A DNA stretch of 64,000 nt, from contig NZ_DS022298.1 in NCBI RefSeq assembly GCF_000153805.1, forward strand, positions 256,616 through 320,615, given 5' to 3'. A program made the position numbers and the translations under genes. The stretch is from Synechococcus sp. BL107. GTDB lineage: Bacteria > Cyanobacteriota > Cyanobacteriia > PCC-6307 > Cyanobiaceae. This document shows, in pieces, positions 17,459 through 34,674 of the stretch; position 1 is the stretch's first letter; every line of letters starts with the position of its first letter. The notes under the pieces are model-generated. The model saw only the letters and a list, made by a program, of their open reading frames with translations. It made no database searches and was not told the DNA's origin.

Positions 17459-18190
17459 ATGCCTGCTCGACTGCCGGACTTCTTAGGGATAGGAACCCAA
17501 AAAGGGGGAACAACGAGTTTGCACGAATGGCTATGCGGACATTCCCAGATTTATTTGCCTGACTGCAAGGAAGTGCACTACTTCGATTTGAACCATGAAA
17601 GGAATGAAAGTTGGTATAAAAACCATTTCATAGACGCCAGAGAGGATCAAAAATGCGGTGAAATAACGCCATTTTATTTATTTCACCCAAACGTTCCATC
17701 AAGAATACACAAACTATTGCCGAAAGTTAAAATGATTGTATTGCTAAGAGATCCAGCAGAGAGAGCAATATCACAAATTTTGCATGCTAAAAGAAAGGGA
17801 TTCGAAACACTTTCACCAGAGGAAGCCATAGCAAGAGAACAAGAAAGGCTCCAACAAGGAGGCATATGGAGCCTCCAAAAACATAGTTACATAGGAAGAA
17901 GCAGGTATTTAGAACAACTAGACAGATATGAGAAATTATTCAAAAAAGATCAAATGCTTATATTAAAAAGCGAAGACCTATTCGAAAAACCAGCCCAAGA
18001 ATGGATAAAAATAACCGAATTCTTAGGGATTAGATCAGACTTAAGGCTCCCAAGCATGCCAAAGGCGAATGAAGGAGTAAGCATGAATGAGAAATTAAAA
18101 CAAAGGCTTCGAAGAAAGATTCGCAAAGAGTTACAAGCTACAGCCGATGGCATAAAAGAACGATACGGCTTTGAGTGGACATGGAATTAA
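17459..18190 (+). CDS. Sulfotransferase (AT-rich, island)
   Basis: 243 residues. [17 protein letters not shown] is the P-loop for the PAPS 5'-phosphosulfate, and [18 protein letters not shown] the 3'-phosphate site, as in the Sulfotransfer_1 or heparan-sulfate N-deacetylase/sulfotransferase-like group. CKEVHYFDL after the P-loop is also typical of that group (KExxYF). The gene is strikingly AT-rich with AGA and AAA codons, unlike secA 66 bases away, and marks the left end of the accessory island. The acceptor is probably a surface carbohydrate, by context with glycosyltransferases and a sulfatase. Confidence 0.88.
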
Positions 18191-18249
18191 GTGAATTGAA
18201 TAGAAAGAAAACATAAAAGCTATTATATATTTTCAAATTAATTCATAAT

Positions 18250-19260
18250 CTATAAACTTGCCTCAACTTTATCTAACGCCAAAGAAACGCTGTCTTGCAT
18301 GGCCGATAAGGAATATCTAGAACGAACTTCAGCAGACAATAAAGTCAGGTTTCGAAAGACTCTATCTGGATTCTGACAAAGAGATAGCTCAAAGTCTTCA
18401 ACAGAATTGACGAAATCTGCCCAATCACCAAAAGCAACTTCAGATGCCATAGAAAACTCTGAACCTAAGTTAAAAAGTTCACGACCACCCAAACCAGAAT
18501 AACCAACAACAGCGCAACCACAGGCAAGAGCTTCAGCTACAGGCAAGCCGAATCCTTCAGGATGGCCAAAGGAGAGAAAAAGAAAACTTTCAGACATAAG
18601 TTCAATAACTGAAGTATGAGCAAGACCGTCAATGGGCTTAATGGTCCAACCAGAAAGCAATGATCGTTCTCTCAAAATAGAAGCGACCACGGAGCCATCA
18701 AGGAGATTCTTACGAGGCATATAGACAATCTGGCGCTTCTTGTTAGAAATGGAAGGGAGACCACCGAGATCGAATCCATTAATAATCAACGAAACACGAT
18801 TGCTTCCAGGAAGAACAAACTCAGAGAGAAACTTGTAATCGTGTTGAGACACACAAAAAACCTGAAGAATCGACTCATGACGATACAATGACAATGCAAT
18901 ATTTGGCTTTAGAAAAGAAGTATCGCCGGAAAGACCAAAAGTATATGATAAGTTTTGATTAAATATGACAGATGGAAAGCCTGCGGCGTATTTAAAAATT
19001 GTAGTCAAGAAAGTCTCTGGAAAGATAATGACATTATGAGTACGTGATAGAGAGGAATCGCGTAACTTAACCCACTCAGAAAACGAAATTGTATTAACAT
19101 TACTGCTAAACCAACCAGGATGGAAATCAGCAGACTCTTGAATAATTGTTGCCTTACGTCCGCAGGCAACAATAGACTCAGCAAGTCGATGCATCTGCTT
19201 TACGCCGCCAATCGGACGAGTAATATCGGGATGGAGAGCTAACCAGTAATGAACCGACAT
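18250..19260 (-). CDS. Glycosyltransferase, family 1/GT4-like
   Basis: 336 residues. The C-terminal half holds the GT-B donor-site pattern: FGHPEGFGLPVAEALACGCA, followed by VVGYSGLGGRELF. This is the E-x7-E type motif of GT4 enzymes. The N-terminal half begins YWLALHPDITRPIGGVKQMH, an acceptor-side loop with GG. It would add a sugar to a surface glycan. The start at 19260 overlaps by 12 bases, head to head, with the divergent sulfatase gene as listed. A later sulfatase start would remove the overlap. AT-rich. Confidence 0.8.
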   Translation of the reverse strand: MSVHYWLALHPDITRPIGGVKQMHRLAESIVACGRKATIIQESADFHPGWFSSNVNTISFSEWVKLRDSSLSRTHNVIIFPETFLTTIFKYAAGFPSVIFNQNLSYTFGLSGDTSFLKPNIALSLYRHESILQVFCVSQHDYKFLSEFVLPGSNRVSLIINGFDLGGLPSISNKKRQIVYMPRKNLLDGSVVASILRERSLLSGWTIKPIDGLAHTSVIELMSESFLFLSFGHPEGFGLPVAEALACGCAVVGYSGLGGRELFNLGSEFSMASEVAFGDWADFVNSVEDFELSLCQNPDRVFRNLTLLSAEVRSRYSLSAMQDSVSLALDKVEASL

Positions 19261-20730
19261 AAATTAAAAGAAAAAATGTGGGAAAAACTAATAGGAAAAT
19301 CTAAGGGGAAACAATATACAAATAAAGACAGAACAAACTTAATATTAATCACATTTGATCAATGGCGAGGTGACTGGGGAGATCCCATGAAACCGGTAAC
19401 AGAACTGAAAGAATTGAAGGCCTTAGCAGAAGAAGGTCTAATAATAGAGAGATGCTATACAAGCAGCCCACAATGTGTGCCGGCAAGAATAAGTTGGTTG
19501 ACGGGTATGAGACCAAGTGAATCTGGAGTTACATATAACAGGCCATTAGATTTGCCAGGTAGCGCACCATCAATGATACGTGAACTAAAAGATTTAGGGT
19601 GGCATACAGCGATAGTAGGAAAAACACATTGGAGCAACCATAACATTGAATGTGACTTAAGAGAAAACAAAAAGAGGCTTAGTGATTTAGGATTTATAGA
19701 ATCAAGAGAAATTGCAGGACCGCGGGCCTTACAAAAAGTAAAATGTGACATAACAGACGATTGGGAAAAGACAGGAGTGTATAAAGCTCACATTAAAGAC
19801 CTCGCTGAACGCTATAAGAATGGATGCAATGAAGCTGCATGGCAGGTTAGAGAAAGTGTTCTTCCTAACTCACTATATCCAGATATTTGGATTGCAAGTA
19901 AGGGTATAGAAATGCTTCAGAAAATGCCGACTAAAAAGCCATGGTTTCTGTGGATTAGTTTCGTAGGCCCGCATGAACCATTTGACACGCCAAAGCCATG
20001 GAAAGGAAGAAATAACAACGAACAACTCCCAAGAGTAATTAAGAATAATGGCTGGATTGACAGATTAGAAACGACATGTGAGACAAAAAAAATCAGGGAT
20101 CTATGGAAAGAAAAATTAAAAAAAGAACATACTGACGCACTTAGACTTGACTATGCGGATCATCTACAATTATTAGATGATCAATTAGGTAAGATTATAG
20201 ATATCGCGAAAGAAAGAACAGACTACAAAAATACAGCAGTAGCAATAACATCAGATCATGGCGAGATGCTAGGAGACCATGAGATGCTCTACAAATCAAC
20301 ATTCTTGGAGCCAAGCGTAAGAGTGCCATTTATATATAGTCCACCGCAAAAGACGAATCAAAGTCACAAAAATATAAGATTGCTTAAGCCAATAGGACTG
20401 ACAGAACTAATAAAATTCACGATTGATGGCTTACATATAGGCGGAAAAAGCAAACATATAGTTAGGAATTGCAAATGGCAAAATTACGCAATTTCCGAGT
20501 ATGGCAAAGAATTCATGATAGTTAAAGGCAAAATTAAAGTTGTCTACACAAGCGAAGGTAAAGCAATATGGGCAACTGACCTAGAAAAAGACCCGGAAGA
20601 GAAAAATAATATACTCGAAAACAAGAATATATCAGTAGCATGTAAAATATTTAGACAGAATAGGATTGCAATTAGGTATGCTCGTCGACGAAAGAAAAAG
20701 GGATGGTGTAAAATTGAATACAATAAATAG
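19249..20730 (+). CDS. Sulfatase (type I, formylglycine-dependent)
   Basis: 493 residues. The N-terminal LILITFDQWRGDWG supplies metal-binding Asp residues. CVPAR at residues 76-80 is the C-x-P-x-R signature whose Cys is converted to formylglycine. SDHGEMLGDHEML at about 345 gives the later Asp-His metal ligands. There is no signal peptide, so it probably acts in the cytoplasm, perhaps on sulfated precursors or as a related phospho-/sulfo-hydrolase. The substrate is unknown. The ATG at 19276 is an alternative start that would avoid overlap with the divergent glycosyltransferase. The gene is very AT-rich with Lys-rich composition. A sulfatase next to sulfotransferases suggests local turnover or editing of a sulfated glycan. 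Confidence 0.85.
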   Translation: MNRHKLKEKMWEKLIGKSKGKQYTNKDRTNLILITFDQWRGDWGDPMKPVTELKELKALAEEGLIIERCYTSSPQCVPARISWLTGMRPSESGVTYNRPLDLPGSAPSMIRELKDLGWHTAIVGKTHWSNHNIECDLRENKKRLSDLGFIESREIAGPRALQKVKCDITDDWEKTGVYKAHIKDLAERYKNGCNEAAWQVRESVLPNSLYPDIWIASKGIEMLQKMPTKKPWFLWISFVGPHEPFDTPKPWKGRNNNEQLPRVIKNNGWIDRLETTCETKKIRDLWKEKLKKEHTDALRLDYADHLQLLDDQLGKIIDIAKERTDYKNTAVAITSDHGEMLGDHEMLYKSTFLEPSVRVPFIYSPPQKTNQSHKNIRLLKPIGLTELIKFTIDGLHIGGKSKHIVRNCKWQNYAISEYGKEFMIVKGKIKVVYTSEGKAIWATDLEKDPEEKNNILENKNISVACKIFRQNRIAIRYARRRKKKGWCKIEYNK

Positions 20731-20748
20731 GATACTTCCAGATTCAGA

Positions 20749-21534
20749 TTACTCAAACGTGCGATCAAATCTTGGCCTAATGGAGGAATGGGGATTGTTG
20801 GTAAGCCAAATAGAAGAAGTACGAAAGGTATCTACATCGCCATTCAAATAGTCAAGAAATCTAGATAATTCAGATGAAGGATAACGACCATGAATAATAT
20901 AGGCGGGTGAGCCACGACCAATAATCCAAGGCTTGGTGGTTCGAACATTAAACTCGTCGGGTAGAATAAATAGACTTAGTGATCGATTGGAAATAGCTTT
21001 CCATAAGACAGAACGAAAGGACGCCTGATCCCAACTCTGATTAAAGCTAGTAAAAAGTAAGTCGTATGATGCAAGCCAATCAGTAACTAATTGACGAAAG
21101 GATGGAGAATTATTAAAAAATAACACTCCGGTGTTTATCTCTGGAAAAAAATCAGGAACAGAAGCATCATTCCAGCCCGGTGGATGACGAACAGGAGCGT
21201 AACAGGCTGCAATATCATAGAATTTCAAAATATTGAAGGTTAAATCAATTGAAGATGATATGAAGGCATCAGTATCGAGAAAAAGTATTTCATCATAGGG
21301 TAAATGCAACAGCGGCGAGATCTTATCTCGATAATTAAAAACTGGACAATCGTGTTGATATATATTTTCGAATACCAAGTCATGATTAATTGATAATGCA
21401 TATTCGAATAAATCAGTGAACAAACAGAAAGGAATAGTCGGAGAGTTAACTTTAGAAAGCCTAGCGTTAAAGAAGGCCTCATCGATATAGGCTTTTCCGG
21501 TAGCAATATAAGTAATACATCTTGAATCCGACAT
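20749..21534 (-). CDS. Nucleotide-diphospho-sugar transferase-like protein
   Basis: 261 residues. ILFLDTDAFISSS at about residue 84 is a DxD sugar-nucleotide/metal motif. DFFPEINTGVLFFNNS is the FNxG-like segment of GT8/GT77-type transferases. It probably uses a nucleotide sugar to extend a glycan. It ends 18 bases from the convergent sulfatase gene. It begins 11 bases after the TPR gene upstream on the same strand, so it is likely part of an operon with it. Confidence 0.65.
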   Translation of the reverse strand: MSDSRCITYIATGKAYIDEAFFNARLSKVNSPTIPFCLFTDLFEYALSINHDLVFENIYQHDCPVFNYRDKISPLLHLPYDEILFLDTDAFISSSIDLTFNILKFYDIAACYAPVRHPPGWNDASVPDFFPEINTGVLFFNNSPSFRQLVTDWLASYDLLFTSFNQSWDQASFRSVLWKAISNRSLSLFILPDEFNVRTTKPWIIGRGSPAYIIHGRYPSSELSRFLDYLNGDVDTFRTSSIWLTNNPHSSIRPRFDRTFE

Positions 21535-21545
21535 GATTCAGATAT

Positions 21546-22616
21546 CTAAGCTACGATATTAACAGAAGGCCAATCTGTAACGAAGGAGAATTGTGACGAC
21601 ATGGTTGACAAGTTATCAATTAATTTGATAAGTGATGGATTATCAGAGTCAAGATCACGTGCGCGACTAGCATAAGACTTGGCTAAGATGATGTCATGAC
21701 GGATGCAAGCAAGATTTGCAAGATTAAATAAGTGCTTAAAAGAATAGCCTTTTAAATTTGCTGCACAACCATAACAGATTTCAGCATAATGAAAAAGCTT
21801 CAAACCTATATAAGCATCAGCAGCTACCTCGTATACATCACCAATCAAATCAGATTTACAATTACCATAAATAGCAGTACAAGTTTTTAGAGCTAAATTA
21901 AAATTTTTCGACAATACTGCTTGCTCTGCCATCTTCAACTGATCACGGTGAAGTTCATGTGAAGTCGATTGAGGAATATTCTTTAATAAAGTTGACTCAT
22001 TCTTATCAAGAACTTTTGCGGTTAGCTTGGAGGTCGTTCTTTTCACTTCATCTGGAGTAAAAGCCATTAGTAGGGGGTCGGCAAGTGACCAAGCTGAATT
22101 ACTCGCTGATTCGATAATAGATTGAGATAAATTTACTTTTTGAAGAGAATCTAATAATCTATTTTTATTGGTTATTGCATCAATAAAATTGGGATTAATA
22201 TTTAATATCTCATCCAATAACAAAAGTGACTCGTCGAAACGTTTAAGATCAATTAATAGATTGGCGTAATTATTCTTTGTGGCCAAAGATTCAGGTGAAA
22301 GCTTTAAAGCTTTCAAAAGTAGAGGTTCTGATCGTTCAAAGTCGCCTAACCTGCGACAAGTAACGCCGAAGAGAGAATAATAAGACTCATCTTCGGAAAA
22401 GCATGATTCAATCTCAATTAGCAAGTTATATGCTTCCTGGTAATTACCAAGACTAAAATAAGAACTAGCTACAATTTTTGCTGCAATAGGTTCTAGAGTC
22501 GAAACAAGTGAGGATGATATCCAAGTTGAAATTACTGACTGATGGTCACCACCTCTGAAATGTGAAATGAGTGTAGAGACTAAATTTGACAAAGCAGCAC
22601 TATTCGATAGATCCAT
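21546..22616 (-). CDS. Tetratricopeptide-repeat protein
   Basis: 356 residues with several TPR-like helical pairs (SYFSLGNYQEAYNLLIEIES, then CRRLGDFERSEPLLLKALKL, then NYANLLIDLKRFDESLLLLD). No catalytic domain is visible. It sits between two glycosyltransferase genes on the same strand. It may be a scaffold or a diverged relative of the neighbouring TPR-glycosyltransferase whose catalytic part is lost. AT-rich. Confidence 0.6.
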   Translation of the reverse strand: MDLSNSAALSNLVSTLISHFRGGDHQSVISTWISSSLVSTLEPIAAKIVASSYFSLGNYQEAYNLLIEIESCFSEDESYYSLFGVTCRRLGDFERSEPLLLKALKLSPESLATKNNYANLLIDLKRFDESLLLLDEILNINPNFIDAITNKNRLLDSLQKVNLSQSIIESASNSAWSLADPLLMAFTPDEVKRTTSKLTAKVLDKNESTLLKNIPQSTSHELHRDQLKMAEQAVLSKNFNLALKTCTAIYGNCKSDLIGDVYEVAADAYIGLKLFHYAEICYGCAANLKGYSFKHLFNLANLACIRHDIILAKSYASRARDLDSDNPSLIKLIDNLSTMSSQFSFVTDWPSVNIVA

Positions 22617-22644
22617 TAAAGCACATGAGTATGAAGAGCATCAA

Positions 22645-24378
22645 CTAGTTATTTGACCTTGCAGAAGCAAATAGCCATTGAGAAGTCTTCTGGAGAGCAG
22701 AATGCCAACCACCAGTGTCATCTTGACGAGCAATACCTACTGATGGATACCAGTAAGAATTGGTTTGATTCTGGTCACTTAACCAACGCCAGTCAAAATG
22801 CTTACTAAGAAGACACATGGTAGGTATATTTAAGGAGCCAGAACCATGAATTGTAGTATTGGCTACGCTTACGACTACATCACATGCAGCAACTTGAGAC
22901 ATCCAAGTGTCCATATCCTTTAGAGAGTCTATGCGAGCATCATGAATAATATCGATGCCGGAGTTTTTCCAATCATATATTGTTTTAGATGTTTAGCCAT
23001 ACTGCAAATCGACAAAACGAAAACCCGGATGTTTAAGTAGAAAGTTCTTGAAAAGATCTTGATTCATAGATTTTTCTTCTATGCGCTTTCCCCTTCCGCC
23101 ACCACGCCAACTAACTCCGACTAAAAAATCCTTTTTGACGCCATGCTTCAAATACTCCGTACGAAACTGATTTGTAAGAGTTGAATTAGAGATTAAAAAA
23201 GGTACCTTGGGCGCAAAATGGTCTATAGAAGTGAAACGCTTACTACAAATGGAGCCAATAGCCGACTGAAAGTCAAAATTGGATGACGAAAGGGTCCCGT
23301 CTTTAATATCTGCAGGTGTGTAGAGAACGAATTTTCCAGCAGTAATCTCAGAAGAAAAAGAACGATGAAGGATCGGAGCTAGTCTAATGGATGTTAAAAG
23401 ACCTATTAGAGCAAACTCCTCGAACAACAAAGGAATGAGCGATACAAACATTATTACGTCTCCAATTGCTTGTTCTTCAAGCAAAAGGAGATGCTTTCCA
23501 ACACCACACTGACCGGTCCATAATGGTAATTGATCAGAAGTAAAGGGCTTAATTAACGCTCGTTGCCATTTTTGAGTGCCATCCGCAGGACAGCGTAAAC
23601 CGTATTCAAATAACGACCATCCACGCTCAAAATTACCCGATTGGAGCAAAAGAGATGAGCAATTCCAACTATGTACATCAACTAAATGCTGTAATTTGTA
23701 CCTATCATCAGCGAGAATACCAGGAGCGAAAGATGCACGCTTCATTGCTAAATCGTAATACTTAGCAGAGGAAACATGATCACATAACATCCTATAGTAA
23801 TTAGCGATTGCAAAATACAAAGCTATTGCGTCAACATCACTGCATTTATCAATTGAATCAAGAACTAAGTACTCAAATTCTGATTTAAGAGATTTTAGGC
23901 GATTATTAAATGAAGGTTCACTCAATAAAATCAAAAGATTTTTAAGCAGAGAAGGAGTCGCTCCGACATGATAAAGAGCTCTTGAAAGCAAAGATGAAGC
24001 CCAATGGTATAATTTAAGGTCTATAAGCCTATCCAAAACATACGAGTAAAATAAAGGCAATTCGGAAGGATATTTTTTTGGATCTGACAAACAAACATGA
24101 AGTCCAAGTAAAAAGAGACCCAAAGATTTAGTTGGATTTACACTGCTACACAAATTCGCATAATTCCCAATGATACCAATATGTAGAGGATAGAAATCTA
24201 ATCCTTTTTTATACACAACAGTTGCTTTATCAAATTCACCCTTCTCTCTAAGAAGTGCGCCATAGTTCTGATATAGTCTCCAATCCTTAATATCTTGATC
24301 GAAGGCCCTGCTATACTGAATTAATGCTTCATCAATATTGTCCTGCCTATGGGCTGCGAGAGCAAGAGAAAGACCCAT
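22645..24378 (-). pseudogene. TPR-glycosyltransferase interrupted by an in-frame TAA
   Basis: Two open stretches, 24378-22993 and 22992-22645, lie in one and the same frame, separated only by a TAA at 22995-22993. The first gives 461 residues: TPR repeats, then a GT-B-like domain with ERGWSLFEYGLRC and LLLLEEQAIGDVIMF. It ends FRFVDLQYG. Directly after the TAA the frame continues TSKTIYDWKNSGIDIIHDA, then VANTTIHGSGSLNIPT and DWRWL, the expected C-terminal end of cyanobacterial TPR-glycosyltransferases (OGT-like/ADP-heptose-type). Intact length would be about 577 residues. The TAA is most simply a recent nonsense mutation of GAA, CAA or AAA. It could also be read through or be a sequencing error. 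Confidence 0.75.
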
Positions 24379-24413
24379 GAGTTTTTAACTAGTTTAACAT
24401 CATCGTCAATATA

Positions 24414-25604
24414 ATGAAAATACTCATTCTTCATCCTAATTTTCCAGGCCAATTCAAGCATTTATGCAGCTTCTTTGAAAATAAAGGTCATGACGTGAGA
24501 TTTATATGCCAAACACACTACGGAAGGCGAATCAAAGGCATCAAATTAATTGCAGTAAAGCACCCTATGGGACACGAGCACTACATAAAAATATCAAAAA
24601 GTGAAAACAAGCGTGTCTCGTTAAGAGCTGACTATTACAGATCAGCTTTTGTAAAATTAAATGAATCAGGCTGGAAACCTAATTTAGTCATTAGTCATAC
24701 GGGATGGGGTTGTGGGGTTCACGTCAAGGAAATTTGGCCTGACACAAAATTAATAGGATACTTCGAATGGTGGTTTTCTCCGGATTCAGAATTAACTCAG
24801 GTAATGAGAAGTAATCCCTATCTAAAATCAATTGCAAAAGATTTTCAAGAACTATGGAAGCGAAACATTCATATGGCATTTGAAATGACTTTAGCAGATT
24901 ATATTGTTGCACCTTCAATATGGCAGAAAAAACAATTACCCGATAGCCTGATAGACAAATGCAATGTCATTTATGATGGAGTAAATGAAAACGTTTTTCG
25001 ATATGACCCTAAACAAATTAGTCCGATTCCAAAAATTACATATGGAACACGAGGAATGGAGCCAATGAGATGTTTTCCAGAATTTATCAAATCTTTGCCT
25101 GCACTAATAGAAAAGTGGCCGGACTTGACTGTAGAAATTGCTGGCTTGGATCAAATTTGCTATGGAGGCAAGAGTCCAAAGAATGGAAGTTGGATGCAGT
25201 GGGCCAAAAATTCTTTAAGCGAAACAGGAATCAGCGACAATATTAAATGGGTAGGGAGATTAGAATATGATGACTATGTTAAGTGGCTACAAAGCAGCTG
25301 GTGCCATGTGTACTTAACGCATCCATATGTTATGAGCTGGAGCTTGCATGAAGCATATTTATGCAATACGCCAATAGTAACTAATAAATCATTGGCAGTT
25401 GAGGAATTATTCGACGACAATGATAATATTGAATTTTGCGTAGATTTGGAAGGTGAAAACATTATTGAAGCGATTAACATGCAATTAAGAAATCCGAATC
25501 GGTGGAAACTGTCCTCCAACAAGAGAAAGGGAAATCTCTCACTACAAACTAATATGAAAAAATGGGAGAATGTTGCAGAAATATTAGTGGCACAGCAAGC
25601 TTGA
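24414..25604 (+). CDS. Glycosyltransferase, GT4 family
   Basis: 396 residues. The N-terminus MKILILHPNFPGQFKHL is typical of the Glyco_trans_4_3 group of GT-B enzymes. The donor-binding half has YGTRGMEPMRCFPEF, WVGRLEYDDYVKWLQSS and HPYVMSWSLHEAYLCNTPIV, where the later Glu binds the nucleotide sugar. It is probably involved in polysaccharide or glycoprotein assembly. It is divergent from the TPR-glycosyltransferase with only 35 bases between. AT-rich. Confidence 0.85.
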   Translation: MKILILHPNFPGQFKHLCSFFENKGHDVRFICQTHYGRRIKGIKLIAVKHPMGHEHYIKISKSENKRVSLRADYYRSAFVKLNESGWKPNLVISHTGWGCGVHVKEIWPDTKLIGYFEWWFSPDSELTQVMRSNPYLKSIAKDFQELWKRNIHMAFEMTLADYIVAPSIWQKKQLPDSLIDKCNVIYDGVNENVFRYDPKQISPIPKITYGTRGMEPMRCFPEFIKSLPALIEKWPDLTVEIAGLDQICYGGKSPKNGSWMQWAKNSLSETGISDNIKWVGRLEYDDYVKWLQSSWCHVYLTHPYVMSWSLHEAYLCNTPIVTNKSLAVEELFDDNDNIEFCVDLEGENIIEAINMQLRNPNRWKLSSNKRKGNLSLQTNMKKWENVAEILVAQQA

Positions 25605-25730
25605 CTGGCTTTGGTCGGATTTAGAAGAAGACTAAGGGCAGTTTGCGAGCATTTCCACAATTATTGACGCATATGGATCAATTGAGTTAATATCTGGCTG
25701 GTCTAGTGTGGCCCTCTTCCAAATTACTCA

Positions 25731-27086
25731 ATGGCTTTTTTAATTACTTCCGCTGGTAGCGTTACCAACGGCACAACTGGCGGGGATCTCTTCACCGCAC
25801 AAAGCGGCGCCGTTGCAAATTCGACCATCAATGGTCTTGCTGGTGCCGATACGATCAGTCTCGAGCAAGGTGGTACTGCTACCAACCTAGATATCGATGC
25901 CGCCGGTGGTATTGATAAAATTGTCATTAGTGGTGCAACGATCTCCGCAGGTAGCATTCTCGGTGGTGCTGGTGGGGACACACTCACTCTCTCTACCGTC
26001 GTCGTTGCAGCATCAACCGATCTGAAGACCGGAGATGGAGATGACACTCTTACGATGAGTGCTACTTCGTTCAAATCTTCACAACTTTACTTCGGCGGCG
26101 GTTCAGATACCGCGCAAATCAGAGCAGTTGATTTCACCGACAGCCTAATCGGCTTTGGTGCAGGCGCCGATGAAGTAACAGCCTCGACGATTACTACTAA
26201 TTCGGCAACCATCCTTGGCGGTGGTGGAGCTGACAAGATGACTATTTCCGGAACAGGTAATAGTCACCTCCTCATCAACATGGACTCCTCAGTCAATGGT
26301 GGTGGAGCTGACACTTTAACTTTCGAAGATGACCTTGGTGCAGACAGCACCATTAAAGGTAAGGGAGGTAAAGATGTTTTGACTGTCAGCGGAGTATCAG
26401 TATCTTCTCAAGTTCTTGGTAACGCTGGCGCTGACAACATCACAGTCGGTGGCACCATGGCCGGTACTGCCTTAGTTGGTGGTGGATCTGGTAACGACAG
26501 CATTACTTTGTCCAATACCTTGGCCGCTGGTTCCACTGTTCAAGGTGGTGGTGGAGCTGATTCCATCGACTTCGGTGGAGACGCTGACGCAGCAGCCTAC
26601 GTTTATGGTGGCAATGGTGCTGACACCCTGAAACTCAATGATGCTTTCTCATCTAATGAGGGCAAGGTTGGTTATGCAGCTTTCACTGAATCCACAATCG
26701 GTGGTTATGACCAAATTGATAACGCTGCGACAGTCAGTGGTATCGATTTCAAATTCGATAACCAAACAACCTTCGTTACTGCTGAAGCTGTCAAAGACAC
26801 CAGCAAGGATCTCGATGCGACTGTCACAGACGGCACTTTCGTCAACGCTGACTTTGGAACCGCAGGTCTTACTGCACGTGTAGGTGTTTTGGATGCAACT
26901 GTAACCACCCAAGGTTCCGTTGCAATCTTCGAAGGATCAACGGGTGATTACTTCATGTTCATTCAGGGCGGCACAACTGGTACCTCTGATGACTTTGTCG
27001 CTGACATTCACGACACAATCACAGGTGTTGCCGGTGGTTTAACCCTTGGTGACAACACCGTTGACATCATCTACGCTAACAACTAA
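25731..27086 (+). CDS. Secreted beta-solenoid repeat protein (RTX-like; type I secretion substrate)
   Basis: 451 residues, no signal peptide, almost no Cys, very Asp/Gly/Ser/Thr-rich and acidic. About residues 25-310 hold twelve or so repeats of ~20-24 residues with the core [ILV]-x-G-G-x-G-A-D-[ST]-[IL] (e.g. LGGGGADKM, QGGGGADSI, YGGNGADTL). This is a variant of the calcium-binding GGxGxD motif with one per coil. The C-terminal ~100 residues contain FMFIQGGTTGTSDDFVADI, a pattern common at the end of cyanobacterial surface proteins exported by type I systems. It likely forms a cell-surface layer or adhesin. The HlyD/ABC module to its right is the obvious exporter. A strong terminator follows. 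It is more GC-rich and acidic than the glycan genes around it. Confidence 0.82.
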   Translation: MAFLITSAGSVTNGTTGGDLFTAQSGAVANSTINGLAGADTISLEQGGTATNLDIDAAGGIDKIVISGATISAGSILGGAGGDTLTLSTVVVAASTDLKTGDGDDTLTMSATSFKSSQLYFGGGSDTAQIRAVDFTDSLIGFGAGADEVTASTITTNSATILGGGGADKMTISGTGNSHLLINMDSSVNGGGADTLTFEDDLGADSTIKGKGGKDVLTVSGVSVSSQVLGNAGADNITVGGTMAGTALVGGGSGNDSITLSNTLAAGSTVQGGGGADSIDFGGDADAAAYVYGGNGADTLKLNDAFSSNEGKVGYAAFTESTIGGYDQIDNAATVSGIDFKFDNQTTFVTAEAVKDTSKDLDATVTDGTFVNADFGTAGLTARVGVLDATVTTQGSVAIFEGSTGDYFMFIQGGTTGTSDDFVADIHDTITGVAGGLTLGDNTVDIIYANN

Positions 27087-27122
27087 TTAATAATCCCATA
27101 GGATTATTTGTTAGTTTTCTAT

Positions 27123-27151
27123 CCCTCTCCGTTTCCGGAGGGGGTTTTTTT
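27123..27151 (+). terminator. Rho-independent terminator of the beta-solenoid gene
   Basis: ccctctccg (27123-27131) pairs with cggaggggg (27136-27144), nine pairs including one G-U, around a four-base loop. It is followed at once by seven T. It lies about 36 bases after the stop. This is the clearest intrinsic terminator in the window and fits a highly expressed surface protein. Confidence 0.85.
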
Positions 27152-27838
27152 ATGGGTAAAATTTATATGCCCCTAATTTATTCATTTTGTTGCCATGGGT
27201 CATACCACTCAACCGATATGTAATATGACAAGCAATACTCGATGCCTCTTCAACGAAACATTCTATTGTGTCACCAATAATTACCCCTTAATCAATATAA
27301 TATAGTCAACATTCCTCATGCCATTGATTTTCTGCACTAATTAGGTCAATGGATCTCCCATACTCGCTTGATACATGGAGGTTTGCGTCATTTTTATGAA
27401 GAGCAAACTCTAGGCGAGGGCTCGAATCCTCTTCCAATCGCAACCTGAAAGAACTGAGAAATTGCGACAACAATAACAAATCTAATTCAACTTAAAATTA
27501 TACTAGCAACACATCCAATAGTCTTCTGGGACTTATATATATTGAATCAGGTAGTGAATAAAACAACTGCCTGCCATAAATGAAATCTATAATTTAAGCA
27601 TAATGAATAGGTAGCAATTTAATAGCAAAGCAAAACTACTATCCCCTGAGACAGTAAGAAAGATTGATGAAAAGAAATTTCAAAGCTTTGGCTATAACAT
27701 CAAATACAAAAGCGAAGAATAGAAAAATAAGAGCAAGATTTTTCCGTTAAATTCTTAAAAATAGACTTAACAACAGGTTAATCCAATCAATTATTCAAAA
27801 TAAAAAAATTATCTGCGCAATCTTTTCTGCAGCAGTAT
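27152..27838. other. AT-rich intergenic stretch without a gene
   Basis: About 690 bases with stops in all frames and no supportable ORF. It separates the secreted protein from the exporter operon, which is convergent with it. Two items stand out: a short tRNA T-arm-like sequence at 27415-27442 and a perfect palindrome at the right edge. Confidence 0.6.
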
Positions 27839-27864
27839 GTCTTATTTGCTTAAGCAAATAAGAC
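27839..27864. repeat. Perfect 26-bp palindrome downstream of the exporter operon
   Basis: gtcttatttgctt is followed directly by its exact reverse complement aagcaaataagac. It sits 12 bases beyond the ABC-exporter stop. There is no T-run on the minus strand, so it is not a canonical terminator. It may be a 3'-end stabilising hairpin or a dimeric protein-binding site. Confidence 0.8.
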
Positions 27865-27876
27865 AGCAAGATTCAT

Positions 27877-30843
27877 TCAATTTCCCTGCTGATCAAAAAG
27901 TGCAGCATATCTTTGATTTAAATTCATTAATTGCTGATGTGTGCCTTCCTCAACTAACTTTCCAGAATCCATTACAAGTATATGATCGCTATTACGGATC
28001 GAGCTCAGGCGATGAGTAATAAACAGTACAGTTCTGCCAGAAGCCCAATCCTGAAGGTTTAAGCAGAGTTGTCTTTCAGTGCTGTAGTCAAGAGCACTTG
28101 TAGCTTCATCCATAACCAAAAGTTGAGGATTAGCAAGTACAGTTCTAGCAATAGCGATGCGTTGCCTTTGACCACCACTCAAATTGCTGCCTCTTTCGGC
28201 TAATGGTGTTGCATAACCTTGACCTAAACTCATAATAAACTCATGAGCACAGGCAATTTTAGCTGCCTCAATAATTGAATCATTTGTGGCTTGTGGATCA
28301 TTCAAAGCAATATTTTCAGCAACTGTACCTTCAAAAAGTAGTGAATCTTGTGGGACAATTCCAATTTGCCTTCTCAAACTTGAAAGATTAACTTTGGAAA
28401 CATCATAATTATCAATAAAAATTCTACCTTGATCGGGTGAATAAAGTTTGGGGATAAGCTTAGTCAAAGTACTTTTTCCACTACCACTTTGGCCTACAAT
28501 GCCAACAAAACTGCCGGCCAAAAGATTTAGGCTTACATCATCAACTTGGTAAGGACCTTTGTCCGCAAAGCGAAAGCTGACACTTTCAAATCGGATATTC
28601 CCAGAGATCGGAGGCATAGAGATTTGAGCAACATCCTCAGCTGCTGAAAGTTCAGGATTCTGATCTAATATGTCACTAAGCCTCTCCATAGATAACTGCA
28701 CTTTCTGAAATCCTTGATACAACCCAGACAATTGCAGTAATGGCGAGGTGACTTTTCCACTAATAATTCTGAAAGCAATCAACATACCGAGAGTTAATTG
28801 ACCTTCTAGTACTAATCCCATTCCTATCCACAAAACAAGTAACGAACTAAATTGATTTAAAAAGCCACCGATCTCTCCGGAAGTAGCACCTAGGGCTGTA
28901 GCTTTAAATCCTTCAGAAACAAAATGTCTATATCTATCTTGCCATTTCCAACGCGCAGTAAGCTCGAAATGCTGCGCTTTAACAGTCTGTATTCCTCCCA
29001 ATACTTCAATAAGATGACTTTGGGTTCTTGCTTGAGCCACAGCACGTTTACGGATAAGATTTTTGTATATAGGAGCAATCAAAAATACCATCAAAACATA
29101 AATCGGAAGCGTACTTAACGCAACAGCCGTAAGGAATGGCGAGTAAACGAGCATTACAGCTAAATATAAAAGCGCAAAAATAATATTTAAAACAGAAACT
29201 AAAGCAGTTCCGGTAAGAAAACCGCGAATCGTATTTAATTCACCTAATCTTTGCGAAAGCTCACCTACTGGTCTTTTTTCAAAGTAAGAAAGTGGAAGAG
29301 CTAATAAGCGATCAATAACAGCAGTTCCTAAAGTCAAATCCATTCTGTCAGTTGTATCGACAAAGATATATGTTCGGAGAGCCGTAAGAAGGCCCTGAAA
29401 AAGAGCAAGTAGTATCATTACAGAACCTAAAACATTTAAACTGCTTAGATTTCCTTGTGTTAAAACTTTATCAATTATTTGCTGAATGAGCAAAGGAATC
29501 ATGAGTCCAAATAGTTGCGCAAACAAAGAAGCTGCAAATACTAAAATTAAGGACTTCCTATATTTTGAAATTAAGGGTGTAAACCAACTCCATCCGAAGC
29601 GAGATCTAGGCGTAGTTCCAATCCTACGTGGAAGAGCAAATCGCAATGTATCCCCTAACTTGTCTTGAAGATCTTTTTCGGTTATAGAAATTAGACCCTT
29701 ATGAGGATGACCTAGAATAATATTCTTACCACTATTAGAGAAAAGCACAACAGGTATCTCTTCAAGCAAAAATATTGCAGGAGCCTCAATGCTAAGAAAA
29801 TACTTTTTGTCTACATTTGCAAGTTGACAATTAAGGCCAAGGACTTCTTGAAGGCTAGCCATTAATTCTAAAGTGAGGGGTTTGTTCCTTCGAAAATGAC
29901 CTTCAACTAATTTAGAAATAGAGTCTCTACGGAATGGCACCTCTTGTTGAAGTGCTACCATCTCACTAATTGCTAAAATCTCCTCAAAAGATCCAACACC
30001 CTTCACAAAAGGATACTTATCATCAAGACCTTGATTATCTGCCTCAAGAATTCCTAACTGCTGCAATGATTTACTTGGATTCTCTATAAACAGAGAATCT
30101 TGATTATTTGAGGAATCAGAACTCAAAGGAGGGCTTAAATCAGGATGGTCTAGTAGACCAACCAATCGGTATGGAAATTTAAAACCCTCTCGTGTCGGTA
30201 AAGATTCTCCTGGCAATACCCTATATCCAGGCGGATAATTAGGGACACCGTCGCTGCTCATAATCCAGACAACATCTGAAGGGCAATCAGATGAAGGTTT
30301 AAACGCAACTCCTGGTTCAATTGATTGAGTCCAAGACTTCTGATTGGCAAGATCATCCAATCTTGATTGCCATCCTTCCAGTTGGTAAAAATTATGATCT
30401 GCGGAGGCTTTTATAACATCGTAAACTTCATGCAGATTTTTAATCTCTGAAAATTTCTTCTGAAAAGGAATACTTTGTTCGAATATTTTGACAAAAATGT
30501 CAGACGGTATTGATAAAAGAAGGGAATCTTCGGAAGCTATTATCCATTCACAAGGTGAAGCACGAAGCAGCGATATCCAACCAATTAATTGACCTGATCC
30601 TCGCAAGTCTATAGTCTTTGATCCATCAGAAGTTTGAGCTAAAAGACGAACTTTTCCCTGAATAACAATATGAATATCCTCAGGGAGCGTGTCAGGACGA
30701 AGAATGCGCTGCCCAAGTGAACATCGCAGAATTTGAGATTTCGAAAAAAGAGCCTTACAGTGTTCTTGACTTAGAGATGAGAATGGTGGCTGTTGACTCA
30801 CAGCTTTTACAATGAGTTCGAGGCTGCCGAGAGAAGAATTCAT
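27877..30843 (-). CDS. Type I secretion ABC exporter with N-terminal cyclic-nucleotide-binding-like domain
   Basis: 988 residues. About 15-130 is a cNMP-binding fold (LSQEHCKALFSKSQILRCSL, then DIHIVIQGKVRLLA, then LRGSGQLIGWISLL). About 290-400 is a degenerate C39-like domain (EVPFRRDSISKLVEGHFRR) without the catalytic Cys, so it docks rather than cleaves. About 425-700 is the six-helix membrane domain. The nucleotide-binding domain has Walker A GQSGSGKST (~785), signature LSGGQRQR (~888) and Walker B LLVMDEATSALD (~908). The layout resembles HetC and other HlyB-like exporters of cyanobacteria. It should form the inner-membrane part of a type I system with the HlyD adaptor; TolC is not in the window. 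It is last in the operon hlyD - parvulin - exporter. AT-rich. Confidence 0.92.
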   Translation of the reverse strand: MNSSLGSLELIVKAVSQQPPFSSLSQEHCKALFSKSQILRCSLGQRILRPDTLPEDIHIVIQGKVRLLAQTSDGSKTIDLRGSGQLIGWISLLRASPCEWIIASEDSLLLSIPSDIFVKIFEQSIPFQKKFSEIKNLHEVYDVIKASADHNFYQLEGWQSRLDDLANQKSWTQSIEPGVAFKPSSDCPSDVVWIMSSDGVPNYPPGYRVLPGESLPTREGFKFPYRLVGLLDHPDLSPPLSSDSSNNQDSLFIENPSKSLQQLGILEADNQGLDDKYPFVKGVGSFEEILAISEMVALQQEVPFRRDSISKLVEGHFRRNKPLTLELMASLQEVLGLNCQLANVDKKYFLSIEAPAIFLLEEIPVVLFSNSGKNIILGHPHKGLISITEKDLQDKLGDTLRFALPRRIGTTPRSRFGWSWFTPLISKYRKSLILVFAASLFAQLFGLMIPLLIQQIIDKVLTQGNLSSLNVLGSVMILLALFQGLLTALRTYIFVDTTDRMDLTLGTAVIDRLLALPLSYFEKRPVGELSQRLGELNTIRGFLTGTALVSVLNIIFALLYLAVMLVYSPFLTAVALSTLPIYVLMVFLIAPIYKNLIRKRAVAQARTQSHLIEVLGGIQTVKAQHFELTARWKWQDRYRHFVSEGFKATALGATSGEIGGFLNQFSSLLVLWIGMGLVLEGQLTLGMLIAFRIISGKVTSPLLQLSGLYQGFQKVQLSMERLSDILDQNPELSAAEDVAQISMPPISGNIRFESVSFRFADKGPYQVDDVSLNLLAGSFVGIVGQSGSGKSTLTKLIPKLYSPDQGRIFIDNYDVSKVNLSSLRRQIGIVPQDSLLFEGTVAENIALNDPQATNDSIIEAAKIACAHEFIMSLGQGYATPLAERGSNLSGGQRQRIAIARTVLANPQLLVMDEATSALDYSTERQLCLNLQDWASGRTVLFITHRLSSIRNSDHILVMDSGKLVEEGTHQQLMNLNQRYAALFDQQGN

Positions 30844-30855
30844 ATTATTTAAAAT

Positions 30856-31500
30856 TTAATCTTTTATAGATTTTAAATGATCGTAGAGATAATCTGACAT
30901 GCCGTTCAACCACAAGTCAAATTGACGCTGCAAGATTCGTTGATCAAGGGCAGGACTACGAACACAAGGAATAAAATCAATCAACTGCAAAATTGCAAAC
31001 ATATTCCCTACAGAAAGAGGCTTTGTTGTTTGACCCACTTTCAATTTTTTTAAAAAGATTTGTATTCCTGAGGGAAATTCTTCCATATTCTGCAATTCAA
31101 AAGCTCCACCCTTGAACCGTTCGCTACCTTCACCATACAACATAGATAACTGCTCAAAAGTAGACTCTCCCATGCTTAATCGATGGTAGAGCTCAAAGGC
31201 GAGACCTTGATTTGAGACCCGAATTAATCTACATGAAGCCTGATCTAAACTATCTTTACACTCTAAAAACAATTGATCGAGACGATGTCCCCAGAACTCT
31301 CTAGCCCATAACAAGTGACCCTGATTGGAAGGATATTTTTGATTAATTCTTTGTCTAATAAACAATCTCAGAAAGGTTTTAAGCATATCCACATCGTCAA
31401 GTAGATGGTGACACGGAAAAATTTGTTCCAGAATAATTTGATTACATTCATTGTCAATCCATTCTGCTGGGGTAGGGTCTAAGATAAAATTAGAATCCAT
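30856..31500 (-). CDS. Parvulin-like peptidyl-prolyl isomerase of the type I secretion operon
   Basis: 214 residues from the ATG at 31500 (MDSNFILDP), four bases after the hlyD stop. Residues ~110-185 fit a rotamase/PpiC domain: FELYHRLSMGESTFEQLSML, then SERFKGGAFELQNMEEFPSG, then LKKLKVGQTTKPLSVGNMFA. The N-terminal half is helical, as in SurA/PrsA-type foldases. There is no signal peptide, so it acts in the cytoplasm on the substrate or on the exporter complex. It begins 12 bases from the ABC gene and is clearly co-transcribed. A longer ORF from 31557 overlaps hlyD and is less likely. Confidence 0.72.
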   Translation of the reverse strand: MDSNFILDPTPAEWIDNECNQIILEQIFPCHHLLDDVDMLKTFLRLFIRQRINQKYPSNQGHLLWAREFWGHRLDQLFLECKDSLDQASCRLIRVSNQGLAFELYHRLSMGESTFEQLSMLYGEGSERFKGGAFELQNMEEFPSGIQIFLKKLKVGQTTKPLSVGNMFAILQLIDFIPCVRSPALDQRILQRQFDLWLNGMSDYLYDHLKSIKD

Positions 31501-31504
31501 TACA

Positions 31505-32719
31505 TTACTGTTGTCGAATACTTTGGACGCTATCAGCTTGATCGACAAGCATGTCACTAAGAAGACTTATAACTCGTTTATCTCGCAATTTTAAATTAGT
31601 AGTAATGGACATTCCTGATTTCAAAGGAACTTTCATCGAATTGGAAATTAAATATGAATTTGAAAGCCTAAGCTTTACTGGGAAACGATAAAAATTCTGT
31701 TCAGTTTTGGGTTCTAGTGCATCAGCAGCGATTTGACTCACTGTAGCTGCGATATCGCCATATCTTGTAAAGGGAAATGCATCAACACGTACTTTAGCTT
31801 CTTGTCCAACTTTGATATAGCCAATATCGTTGTTAGGAACATATACTTCAGCGTATAGGCCTTTCTGAGGAACAATAGAAACAATTCTTTCGCCAGCAGA
31901 CATCACACCATCTGCGCTTGCTTGAGGGTCAAACACAATGCCTGATACTGGGGCATTGACGTTTTGGTACTGAAGTTGTAACTCAGCGGCTTTTAGTCTT
32001 GTTTCCATCTCATTAATAGATTTTGTAGAGCTTAACTGAATCTGCTCAACTTGATTATTTAATTGGTTTTGTTGTTCTAAGAGCTCACCTAATTGATTCT
32101 CAAGCTGAAAGAGTTCATCTTTTTGTTCTAAATACTGAAGACGTTGAAACCCCCCTTCTTCTACAAGGGTCTCCATTTGCTTCAGAATCATTGATTTAGT
32201 TTTAATGCGTCTTTTAAGAACTTCTACTCTGCTTAACAACATTGCCTCCTGGCTATTAATAGTAGAGACTTGAGACTTCAATTCTTTTTTCTCAATAGCA
32301 ATAACTCGTACAAGCATTTCTTGTTCTTGTTTAGCTTGACGCGTATCAAAGCGAAGTAGCAATTGGCCTTTCTGAACGTTATCTCCATCGTTAAATAAAA
32401 CTTCAGCTACCTTTCCGCCAGCTGGTGTTTTCACTTCGATAGTTCCACCAATAGATTTTAATTGGCCTTGAACAGTGACGACTTCGTCAATTCTAAAAAA
32501 GATACCAACTAATAGAGCTGTACCTCCGAGTGCCAGCATAAGCGCTGTAAGCCCTTGAGCCCAAGCTGGAGTTTGTCGAAGTACTAAAGATCTATTTCGA
32601 GCTAACCATTTATTCGCTGCATCACCGACTTGCTGCTTGACAGTGAGCTTAGATCGAACATTTGAATCATCTGCAGATGATTGAGAAGTATTTTCGGTGA
32701 TTAGGGGCTTCTTCTCCAT
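31505..32719 (-). CDS. HlyD-family membrane fusion protein (type I secretion adaptor)
   Basis: 404 residues: a cytoplasmic N-tail, one membrane helix at ~54-75 (WAQGLTALMLALGGTALLVG), a barrel/lipoyl half-motif (GGTIEVKTPAGGKVAEVLFN, then GDNVQKGQLLLRFD), long coiled coils (~110-250), the returning lipoyl half (YQNVNAPVSGIVFDPQASAD) and a C-terminal beta domain. This is the adaptor joining an ABC exporter to an outer-membrane channel. First gene of the three-gene operon. About 260 bases of AT-rich DNA separate its start from the tRNA-Gly gene on the same strand, and the operon promoter should lie there. Confidence 0.92.
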   Translation of the reverse strand: MEKKPLITENTSQSSADDSNVRSKLTVKQQVGDAANKWLARNRSLVLRQTPAWAQGLTALMLALGGTALLVGIFFRIDEVVTVQGQLKSIGGTIEVKTPAGGKVAEVLFNDGDNVQKGQLLLRFDTRQAKQEQEMLVRVIAIEKKELKSQVSTINSQEAMLLSRVEVLKRRIKTKSMILKQMETLVEEGGFQRLQYLEQKDELFQLENQLGELLEQQNQLNNQVEQIQLSSTKSINEMETRLKAAELQLQYQNVNAPVSGIVFDPQASADGVMSAGERIVSIVPQKGLYAEVYVPNNDIGYIKVGQEAKVRVDAFPFTRYGDIAATVSQIAADALEPKTEQNFYRFPVKLRLSNSYLISNSMKVPLKSGMSITTNLKLRDKRVISLLSDMLVDQADSVQSIRQQ

Positions 32720-32978
32720 TGCTTAACCACAGCTTGGCAATATCATACTTTGCTTTAAAACGAAAGCCAAGTATTGAAAGAACCTAAATATAGGATTCAC
32801 TATAAAGCATCGAGGCTTGGAAGTACAATAAAATCCATCTCGAGGAGCAACTAGGTGATGCTCTCTTCGCAAAATAAACATATTTACGCTTGTGAAACCT
32901 TGTCGATAATTACAGATTGAAGAATGCTCATTTAATTCGTACAAAAATGATTCCTAGCGAATTAATAAAAATAAATAA

Positions 32979-33050
32979 AGCGGATGAAGAGATTCGAACT
33001 CTCGACCCTCTCCTTGGCAAGGAGATGCTCTACCACTGAGCTACATCCGC
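32979..33050 (-). tRNA. tRNA-Gly (anticodon GCC)
   Basis: The minus strand reads a full cloverleaf: acceptor GCGGATG/CATCCGC, D arm GCTCAGTGGTAGAGC, anticodon arm TCTCC-TTGCCAA-GGAGA (GCC), T arm GAGAG-TTCGAAT-CTCTT and discriminator U. CCA is not encoded. It marks the right boundary of the AT-rich island, whose T1SS operon begins downstream of its 3' end. Confidence 0.97.
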
Positions 33051-33111
33051 AATCGCATGAACCCTTGGGTTCCTGTCGCTAAGCCAGCATGCACCACCAA
33101 GGTGCCTGAGG

Positions 33112-33597
33112 TCAATCCAAAGGCGGCAATGCAGCCATCAATGAACCCATTTCCAACGCCTCCAAGCCATAGGACCAGCCCAGATTGCTTTTAATACCAG
33201 CCCGCTCCAAGGCCTGTTGCATGGTGTCTGTGGTGAGCACGCCAAAGATCACAGGAATGCTGGTGTCGCGAGCAACCGCAGCGATGCCTTTACTGGCCTC
33301 CCCCACCACGACATCGAAGTGGGGTGTATCACCGCGAATGACCGCACCAAGAGTGATCACCACTTGATAGCGACCGCTTCGAGCCAGCTGCTGGCAAACC
33401 AGGGGGAGCTCAAAAGAGCCAGGCACCCAAGCCACATCGAGTTGGGAACTTGTGGACGATGTATCAACGCCATGGCGAGCCAAGCAATCAAGGCATCCGC
33501 TCAGCAACTTGGCTGTAACGAGATCATTGAAGCGGGCTACCACTACTGCGATGCGAAGACCTGCTGTATTGGTAAAACGACCTTCGAAAGTTGCCAT
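33112..33597 (-). CDS. ribH: 6,7-dimethyl-8-ribityllumazine synthase
   Basis: 161 residues from the ATG at 33597 ([10 protein letters not shown]). Family motifs: [17 protein letters not shown], then [13 protein letters not shown], then [14 protein letters not shown] with the catalytic His region, and [12 protein letters not shown]. It makes lumazine, the riboflavin precursor, in the penultimate step of riboflavin synthesis. It follows psbZ by 7 bases on the same strand, and this psbZ-ribH pairing is typical of marine Synechococcus. A start at 33714 would overlap psbZ and is rejected. Confidence 0.96.
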
Positions 33598-33604
33598 ATG
33601 GGTT

Positions 33605-33793
33605 TTAAACGACGAAGAAGCTGACACCCCAGTTGAGTAGAACCAGAGCAACCCAGGCTGCACTACCCAAAAGAATAAGGCGATTGGAGCGACCGCTGTC
33701 TTCGTTCGAAGCAAACAGCACTGGCACTGCGACGATCAACGCGAAAGAAACCACCACAAGGGCCAGAACGGTGAGAGTGTTAAGGAACTGCAT
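33605..33793 (-). CDS. psbZ: Photosystem II protein PsbZ (Ycf9)
   Basis: 62 residues: [20 protein letters not shown], then a polar loop ([12 protein letters not shown]), then a second membrane helix ([20 protein letters not shown]). The length and the two-helix hairpin with this loop are those of PsbZ, a PSII core subunit at the CP43 side that affects antenna coupling. It lies within a longer ORF reaching 33976, whose extra N-terminus is unlike the family. The upstream 71 bases to the divergent glycosyltransferase gene must hold its promoter. Confidence 0.96.
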
Positions 33794-33864
33794 GGATCGG
33801 CGGGACGTTTGATAATTGTCACACGAAGAGACGATCCCCTGGTGGAAGAGAGACCAGCCGTCAT

Positions 33865-34674
33865 ATGAGCAAGCAGCCCAAGGTGAGCTTTCTAATCCCC
33901 GCCAAGAACAGGCCCCACGAACTGAAAGCAGCGCTAGGGAGCTGCCTTGCACAAAGCTTTGAGGATTGGGAAGCACTTGTGGTGGATGACCACAGCGATT
34001 CCAGCGACCTTGCTTCCGTAGTGAACGCGTTTCAAGATGATCGGCTGAGATTTCACCGATTGGACGACCTCAACCGTGGGGTATCAAGCGCGCGCAATCA
34101 GGCCATTGCCATGGCCCAGAGTGACCGTTTCATCACCCTCGATAGCGACGACCTCAACCATCCCCACCGGGCTGCACGCTGCTTTCAGCTGCTCAATCCC
34201 AGCAACCCAGCACTGATTTACACACGCGTGCGTTTGTTCAGCAGTGCTCGACCTGAAGGACGACCCAAACCTGTTCTTCAACCCTTCTCATCCGCACTCT
34301 TTGAGATGGTGAATTTCATCACCAACCCTGGGACTGCTTTTACCCGCAAGGCATTTGAGGCCGCAGGCGAAGGATTCCGTCCGGACTTAACCATGGCTGA
34401 GGACTATGACCTGTATCTCCGAATGGCACGCACTGGAGTGAATATCCAAGCGGTGGACGAAGAGCACGTGAGTTACCGCAAGCACGCCCAAGCAACGACA
34501 GCCAACCGCGATGCAGACCTACATGCAGCGATCATGCGCGTGCGTGCACTCAATAAAGTCACTCCATTTCCCCTCGAGGCCATCCGTGCCCATGCTCTAC
34601 CTGAGCTAAGCAGCAATCTGCTGAATGATGCCGCGCAGCGTGCGCTCTGGACCGATGACCGCTGGACAACCTGA
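33865..34674 (+). CDS. Glycosyltransferase family 2
   Basis: 269 residues. VSFLIPAKNRPHELKAALGS and VVDDHSDSSDLA form the UDP-sugar-binding half. ITLDSDDLNHPHRA is the DxD motif, and DLTMAEDYDLYLRMARTG the catalytic ED segment. A soluble inverting GT-A enzyme. A sulfotransferase-like gene follows after five bases, so the two are surely co-transcribed. Base composition is near core, unlike the island to the left. Confidence 0.9.
   Translation: MSKQPKVSFLIPAKNRPHELKAALGSCLAQSFEDWEALVVDDHSDSSDLASVVNAFQDDRLRFHRLDDLNRGVSSARNQAIAMAQSDRFITLDSDDLNHPHRAARCFQLLNPSNPALIYTRVRLFSSARPEGRPKPVLQPFSSALFEMVNFITNPGTAFTRKAFEAAGEGFRPDLTMAEDYDLYLRMARTGVNIQAVDEEHVSYRKHAQATTANRDADLHAAIMRVRALNKVTPFPLEAIRAHALPELSSNLLNDAAQRALWTDDRWTT

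What the first reader, a model, noticed from the sequence alone, without database searches (positions are those of the whole stretch)
22645..24378. TPR-glycosyltransferase split by one in-frame TAA
The frame before and after the TAA at 22993-22995 is identical, and the downstream 116 codons contain the family's conserved C-terminal motifs (VANTTIHGSGSLNIPT, DWRWL). A single-base change explains it. It may be a recent pseudogene, a phase-variable or strain-specific knock-out of a surface glycan gene, a read-through site, or a sequencing error.
Basis: seen in the sequence. Interest (0 to 1): 0.5.

Follow-up and report, generated by a model that had tools for sequence, protein, structure and literature searches.

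The report
Broken sugar-transfer gene in marine Synechococcus
A gene that probably adds sugars to an exported surface protein of a marine cyanobacterium is cut short by one stop codon, and the same gene is broken by a different stop codon in another species of the genus, which suggests repeated loss of this step, though the evidence is from sequence alone.

Summary
The minus-strand frame 24378-22645 is open except for one TAA at 22993-22995 (codon 462 of 578). It encodes a TPR plus glycosyltransferase protein in a low-GC island of what is inferred to be a marine Synechococcus. Among 16 near full-length matches in 400 family genomes, 14 run straight through; none ends at LQYG with a separate downstream gene. 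The 115 codons after the stop keep 21 of 21 residues invariant in 13 intact relatives, so the stop is probably young. A fold of an intact relative puts the stop inside the second Rossmann half of a GT9-like GT-B domain, so the product should be inactive.

New here: another finished genome of the genus (G147) carries a different single in-frame stop (TGA at an invariant Trp), 30 codons further on. In 82 alignments of neighbouring genes from the cassette there is no stop. The cassette joins type I secretion, an RTX-like protein, glycosyltransferases and sulfur-ester enzymes. Best reading: recent, independent losses of a glycosyltransferase, plausibly selected (for example by phages). Sequencing error is not excluded; read-through and phase variation are unlikely. 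A known kind of event; modest interest.

The parts
22645..24378 (-). interrupted TPR-glycosyltransferase gene, 578 codons including the internal and the terminal stop
22993..22995 (-). in-frame TAA, codon 462
22996..24378 (-). remaining 461-codon product: TPR part, first Rossmann half of the GT-B domain and the first strands of the second
   Evidence: mapped on the model through the alignment
22645..22992 (-). 115 codons cut off (most of the second Rossmann half) plus the terminal stop; still strongly conserved
21546..22616 (-). TPR protein; its relative lies next to the TPR-glycosyltransferase in 13 of 13 compared loci (cut by a contig end in two)
20749..21534 (-). conserved protein of unknown family, found in 3 of 13 compared loci and in L069
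19249..20730 (+). sulfatase-family protein (PF00884); found in 3 of 13 compared loci and in L069
18250..19260 (-). glycosyltransferase (PF00534, just over its cut-off); found in 9 of 13 compared loci
17459..18190 (+). sulfotransferase (PF00685), next to secA; found in 6 of 13 compared loci
24414..25604 (+). divergent glycosyltransferase (PF12000 + PF00534); found in 13 of 13 compared loci, directly beside the TPR-glycosyltransferase in 12, nearby in L045
25731..27086 (+). RTX-like repetitive protein, 451 aa, 5 GGxGxD motifs, 22% Ser+Thr, no Cys, no Pfam match; found in 10 of 13 compared loci; candidate substrate (inferred)
27877..30843 (-). type I secretion-like ABC transporter with cNMP-binding domain; found in 9 of 13 compared loci
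30856..31557 (-). PPIC-type peptidyl-prolyl isomerase (just over the Pfam cut-off); found in 8 of 13 compared loci
31505..32719 (-). HlyD-type membrane fusion protein; found in 7 of 13 compared loci

Best explanation
A recent nonsense mutation has inactivated a TPR-containing GT-B glycosyltransferase of a secreted-protein and surface-glycan cassette in a marine Synechococcus island. The intact enzyme most likely uses its TPR half to hold a protein, perhaps the RTX-like protein encoded two genes away and exported by the neighbouring type I system, and its GT9-like half to transfer a sugar in the cytoplasm before export. The TAA removes most of the second Rossmann half, which in GT-B enzymes binds the sugar donor (recalled), so the product is inactive and the glycan is missing or shortened; the rest of the cassette is open. 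An independent stop in the same gene of a second species suggests that losing this step is tolerated or now and then favoured, for example to escape phages. Shown: the stop, intact relatives, the position in the predicted fold, the second stop, the open neighbours. Inferred: enzyme activity, substrate, loss of function, selection.
For: Single TAA in an otherwise open 578-codon frame. 14 of 16 near full-length matches are uninterrupted; the other two, the window and G147, carry one stop each. The stops are independent: the window has W at the G147 site and G147 has D at the window's site. 21 of 21 post-stop and 41 of 42 pre-stop invariant residues are kept; 52 nonsynonymous sites at the 21 codons give a rough 95% bound of 0.058 neutral substitutions per site since the stop. 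The fold of an intact orthologue (mean pLDDT 87.4) has helices 2-262 (TPR) and a GT-B region matching GT9 structures over 289-577; the stop falls at its residue 462, the G147 stop at 492. One match only, the gene itself, for the lost part in this genome at E <= 1e-5. No stop in 82 alignments of neighbouring genes in 13 loci, nor in 7 more in L069. In a study of 34 phage-resistant Nostoc strains the four genes hit repeatedly were all glycosyltransferases and 13 of 16 such mutations were nonsense, as that paper uses the word (PMC12507012, passages).
Against: No reads, no expression data, no second genome of the species. The nearest orthologue is only about 41% identical, so there is no dN/dS test of recency. 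That both stops fall in this gene is weak statistically (0.169 squared = 0.029) and was noticed after the fact. Substrate and selection by phages rest on analogy only. A 461-residue product with a function of its own (for instance TPR binding) is not excluded.
Confidence: 0.78

Rival explanations
1. Sequencing or assembly error: the gene is intact in the living strain.
For: Only one position is affected and what follows is conserved. Reads were not available.
Against: The genome is one contig, 99.93% complete. No stop inside the match in the 150 rows printed (of 383, my sum of the matches column) for a glycosyltransferase domain in 34 genus genomes, nor in the rows printed (of 189; not counted one by one) for the ABC domain in 5 genomes including this one; these controls see only the domain stretch. 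G147 has a stop in the same gene as well.
Confidence: 0.12
2. Programmed or leaky stop read-through gives a small amount of full-length enzyme.
For: The downstream frame is preserved at the level of intact orthologues.
Against: 14 of 16 near full-length relatives have no stop; the two stops differ in codon and position; RNA after the stop is not unusually structured (z -0.95; G147 z -1.63, 12 of 200 shuffles at least as stable). The first in-frame ATG, GTG or TTG for re-initiation lies 26 codons on and gives an 89-residue fragment.
Confidence: 0.04
3. The truncated 461-residue protein is a working form, for example a TPR scaffold without catalysis.
For: The pre-stop part keeps 41 of 42 invariant residues; a separate TPR-only neighbour exists (21546-22616).
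Against: No relative among the 16 near full-length matches is naturally that short; the cut leaves the second Rossmann half unfinished; the lost part is still well conserved, unlike an old adaptation.
Confidence: 0.06

Closest known systems
Loss of surface glycosyltransferase genes in phage-resistant cyanobacteria (PMC12507012, PMC10811720; passages read)
   Same: Loss-of-function changes recur in glycosyltransferase genes of accessory surface clusters; nonsense changes (as the paper counts them) dominate among the repeatedly hit genes in PMC12507012.
   Different: There they arose under phage selection in Nostoc in the laboratory; here the cause is unknown, the host is a marine Synechococcus and the two cases are in different species.
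FlmG of Caulobacter crescentus, TPR plus GT-B cytoplasmic O-glycosyltransferase (PMC7591256; start of abstract in the listing, and passages)
   Same: N-terminal TPR part, C-terminal GT-B part, similar length (596 residues against 568-588 in the 13 intact relatives as read here).
   Different: FlmG modifies flagellins with pseudaminic acid; here the neighbours point to an RTX-like type I secreted protein, the donor is unknown, and sequence relatedness to FlmG was not tested.
GT9 structures: 3tov, heptosyltransferases WaaF (1psw) and WaaC (2h1h)
   Same: Same fold over the GT half: Z 16.1-17.7, rmsd 3.5-3.7 over 245-263 residues.
   Different: Those chains (322-344 residues) align with the GT half only and the TPR half is extra; none of the 8 Pfam families matched by the intact orthologue L002 at E <= 0.1 is a glycosyltransferase family.

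Membership tests
Pseudogene by nonsense mutation | In-frame stop absent from intact relatives, removing a conserved part | tested here: met
Pseudogene by nonsense mutation | Stop confirmed in reads of the strain, and loss of function | not testable with these tools
   no reads, no assays
TPR cytoplasmic protein glycosyltransferases (FlmG-like) | N-terminal TPR domain plus C-terminal GT-B domain | tested here: met
   intact orthologue L002 and its relatives
TPR cytoplasmic protein glycosyltransferases (FlmG-like) | Transfers sugar to a specific protein bound by the TPR part | not testable with these tools
   needs biochemistry
TPR cytoplasmic protein glycosyltransferases (FlmG-like) | Sequence homology to FlmG | not tested
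   FlmG sequence not fetched
GT9 | GT-B fold of the heptosyltransferase type | tested here: met
GT9 | Match to a GT9 sequence profile in Pfam | tested here: not met
   8 families for L002, all TPR; for the 13 members together only 25 of 36 matched families are shown, none a glycosyltransferase family
Phase-variable gene | Repeat tract or invertible segment at the switch | tested here: not met
   no repeat spans the stop; nearest is an imperfect 2 x 11-base tandem 46 bases away
Programmed read-through gene | Conserved stop position among relatives | tested here: not met

The most novel reading that the evidence does not exclude
This TPR-glycosyltransferase is a repeated loss-of-function target in marine Synechococcus: strains keep the whole secretion and glycosylation cassette but knock out this one transfer step, changing the sugar on an exported RTX-like protein that serves as a phage or grazer recognition point.
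Probability: 0.25. Interest if true: 0.55.

Novelty: new member of a known kind. Interest (0 to 1): 0.3.

Why it matters
Alone, one interrupted surface-glycan gene is ordinary. With a second, independent stop in the same gene of another species, and an otherwise open cassette, it points to a specific step whose loss can be tested for effects on phage adsorption or grazing. It also draws attention to a cassette in marine picocyanobacteria in which a TPR glycosyltransferase travels with an RTX-like protein and its likely export system.

Tried and rejected
These cover only the domain stretch and only the printed rows: 150 counted rows of 383 (my sum of the matches column) for PF00534; the printed rows of 189 for PF00005, not counted one by one. 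In one search only 3 first-look candidates per genome were scored, and the 400 genomes are a draw from a larger family, so more copies may exist.

A third apparent case, a TGA inside a distant paralogue match of G131, was checked and is that gene's natural end; likewise the stop near the end of the L075 match.

Slippage, repeats or inversion at the site: an imperfect 2 x 11-base tandem at 23041-23062, a 17-base direct pair and an 80% inverted pair with arms 806 bases apart were found, none spanning the stop. Structure after the stop: nothing significant.

Paper searches for this cassette or for a TPR glycosyltransferase with type I secretion in marine Synechococcus listed no paper that I could recognise as describing it; the library lacks most subscription journals.

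In the alignment G160 (L024) was left out because of ambiguous bases, so 13 of the 14 intact near full-length relatives are in A2. Start codons of several relatives in A2 were chosen by me to match the family's beginning, not taken from an annotation. Foldseek's own top rows are SPINDLY and OGT with low TM-scores.

Full report
Observation. The minus-strand frame 24378-22645 has 578 codons, with TAA at codon 462 (22993-22995) and its terminal stop at codon 578. The first 461 codons match TPR families in Pfam; the last 115 have no Pfam match on their own. The window lies in one 2,285,034-base contig.

Relatives. An intact orthologue (L002, 588 aa) searched against 400 genomes drawn from the family gave 19 matches in 18 genomes at E <= 1e-30; 16 are near full length. 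Fourteen of these run through without a stop; two carry exactly one: the window (TAA) and G147 (TGA). None of the 16 is naturally split at LQYG. L069, a contig labelled Gammaproteobacteria MAG with the same cassette, adds one more intact copy. In the genus, 10 of 34 genomes (the window's included) hold the gene at E <= 1e-8, so it is accessory, though many of those genomes are incomplete.

The second stop. In G147 the TGA (L003 2977-2979) stands where 13 of 13 intact aligned sequences and the window have Trp, in a motif that is mostly DMDxW. It is 31 alignment columns after the window's stop, or 30 residues in the intact reference. G147 has a sense codon at the window's site and the window at G147's, so the two stops arose separately. 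Both genomes are single-contig assemblies. A TGA noted in a third, distant paralogue was a natural end.

Age. Of columns invariant in 13 intact sequences, the window keeps 41 of 42 before and 21 of 21 after the stop; G147 keeps 42 of 42 and 20 of 20, its own stop left out. With 52 nonsynonymous sites in the 21 codons, seeing no change gives a rough 95% bound of 0.058 neutral substitutions per site since the stop. This is a loose bound, but it fits an event younger than the split from the other species sampled (inference). Mean identity to intact relatives after the stop (47.8%) lies in the range of the intact sequences themselves (36.5-48.8%).

Fold and consequence. AlphaFold2 on the intact orthologue with 13 aligned sequences gave mean pLDDT 87.4. 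Residues 2-262 are TPR-like helices. Residues about 289-577 align with GT9-type structures: 3tov Z 17.7 (rmsd 3.6, 263 aligned), WaaF 1psw Z 17.2 (3.7, 253), WaaC 2h1h Z 16.1 (3.5, 245). O-GlcNAc transferases appear through their TPR plus GT-B layout, with large rmsd. Through the alignment the window's stop maps to residue 462, just after a strand (453-457) of the C-terminal Rossmann half; the G147 stop maps to residue 492. In GT-B enzymes that half carries most donor contacts (recalled knowledge), so both products should be inactive (inference). In this genome the lost part matches only itself at E <= 1e-5.

Surroundings. The gene lies in a low-GC stretch: 36-46% in the 2-kb bins from 18001 to 34000, against 49.5-63% in the other bins of the window. 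I compared 13 loci of other genomes, several of them cut by contig ends. The TPR protein and the divergent glycosyltransferase were found in 13 of 13, the RTX-like protein in 10, the ABC transporter and the second glycosyltransferase in 9 each, the PPIase in 8, HlyD in 7, the sulfotransferase in 6, and the sulfatase and the unknown 261-residue protein in 3 each. secA was found in 7. The order differs in L045. Apart from a paralogue of the divergent glycosyltransferase in two loci, each neighbour matched as one piece, with no stop in 82 gene-by-locus alignments (one of these is a flanking gene; secA left out); seven more in L069 also have none. Many of these alignments do not cover the whole gene, so lesions near ends would be missed. 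This gene makes up 16.9% of the codons compared, so that both stops fall in it has a chance value of about 0.029; this was computed after the pattern was seen and is suggestive only.

Mechanism. The layout resembles FlmG, a TPR plus GT-B enzyme that glycosylates flagellins in the cytoplasm (PMC7591256, passages). The most likely role of the intact enzyme is to glycosylate a protein before export, and the RTX-like protein (22% Ser+Thr, five GGxGxD motifs, no Cys) is the natural candidate; a role in a surface polysaccharide is the alternative. Loss would leave the exported protein bare or with a shorter glycan. In Nostoc, four glycosyltransferase genes were hit repeatedly in phage-resistant strains, 13 of 16 such mutations being nonsense as that paper counts them (PMC12507012, passages; see also PMC10811720, passages). 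In marine Synechococcus, an island specific to one clade holds a glycosyltransferase and swmA, and two strains of that clade lack swmA and swmB (PMC7522525, passages). Phage selection is therefore plausible, but nothing here tests it; loss during culture would look the same.

Verdict. Observation confirmed; recent loss of function is the best reading (0.78). Sequencing error remains the main rival (0.12). Known kind of event; the added value is the independent second stop and the cassette.

Noticed in passing
L003 2977-2979 (G147:C1, inside 91469-93217): Independent in-frame TGA at an invariant Trp codon of the orthologous TPR-glycosyltransferase in another finished genome of the genus.
   Followed up: yes
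window 17459-32719: Recurrent low-GC cassette, near secA, joining type I secretion genes, an RTX-like protein, glycosyltransferases and, in some loci, sulfotransferase and sulfatase; I found no paper in the held library that I recognised as describing it.
   Followed up: partly
L069 1-11644 (PBRQ01000006.1): A contig labelled Gammaproteobacteria MAG carries eight neighbouring cassette genes (TPR-glycosyltransferase included); probably a picocyanobacterial contig that was misbinned.
   Followed up: partly
window 20749-21534: Conserved 261-residue protein without a Pfam or NCBIfam match, found in 3 of 13 compared loci and in L069.
   Followed up: no
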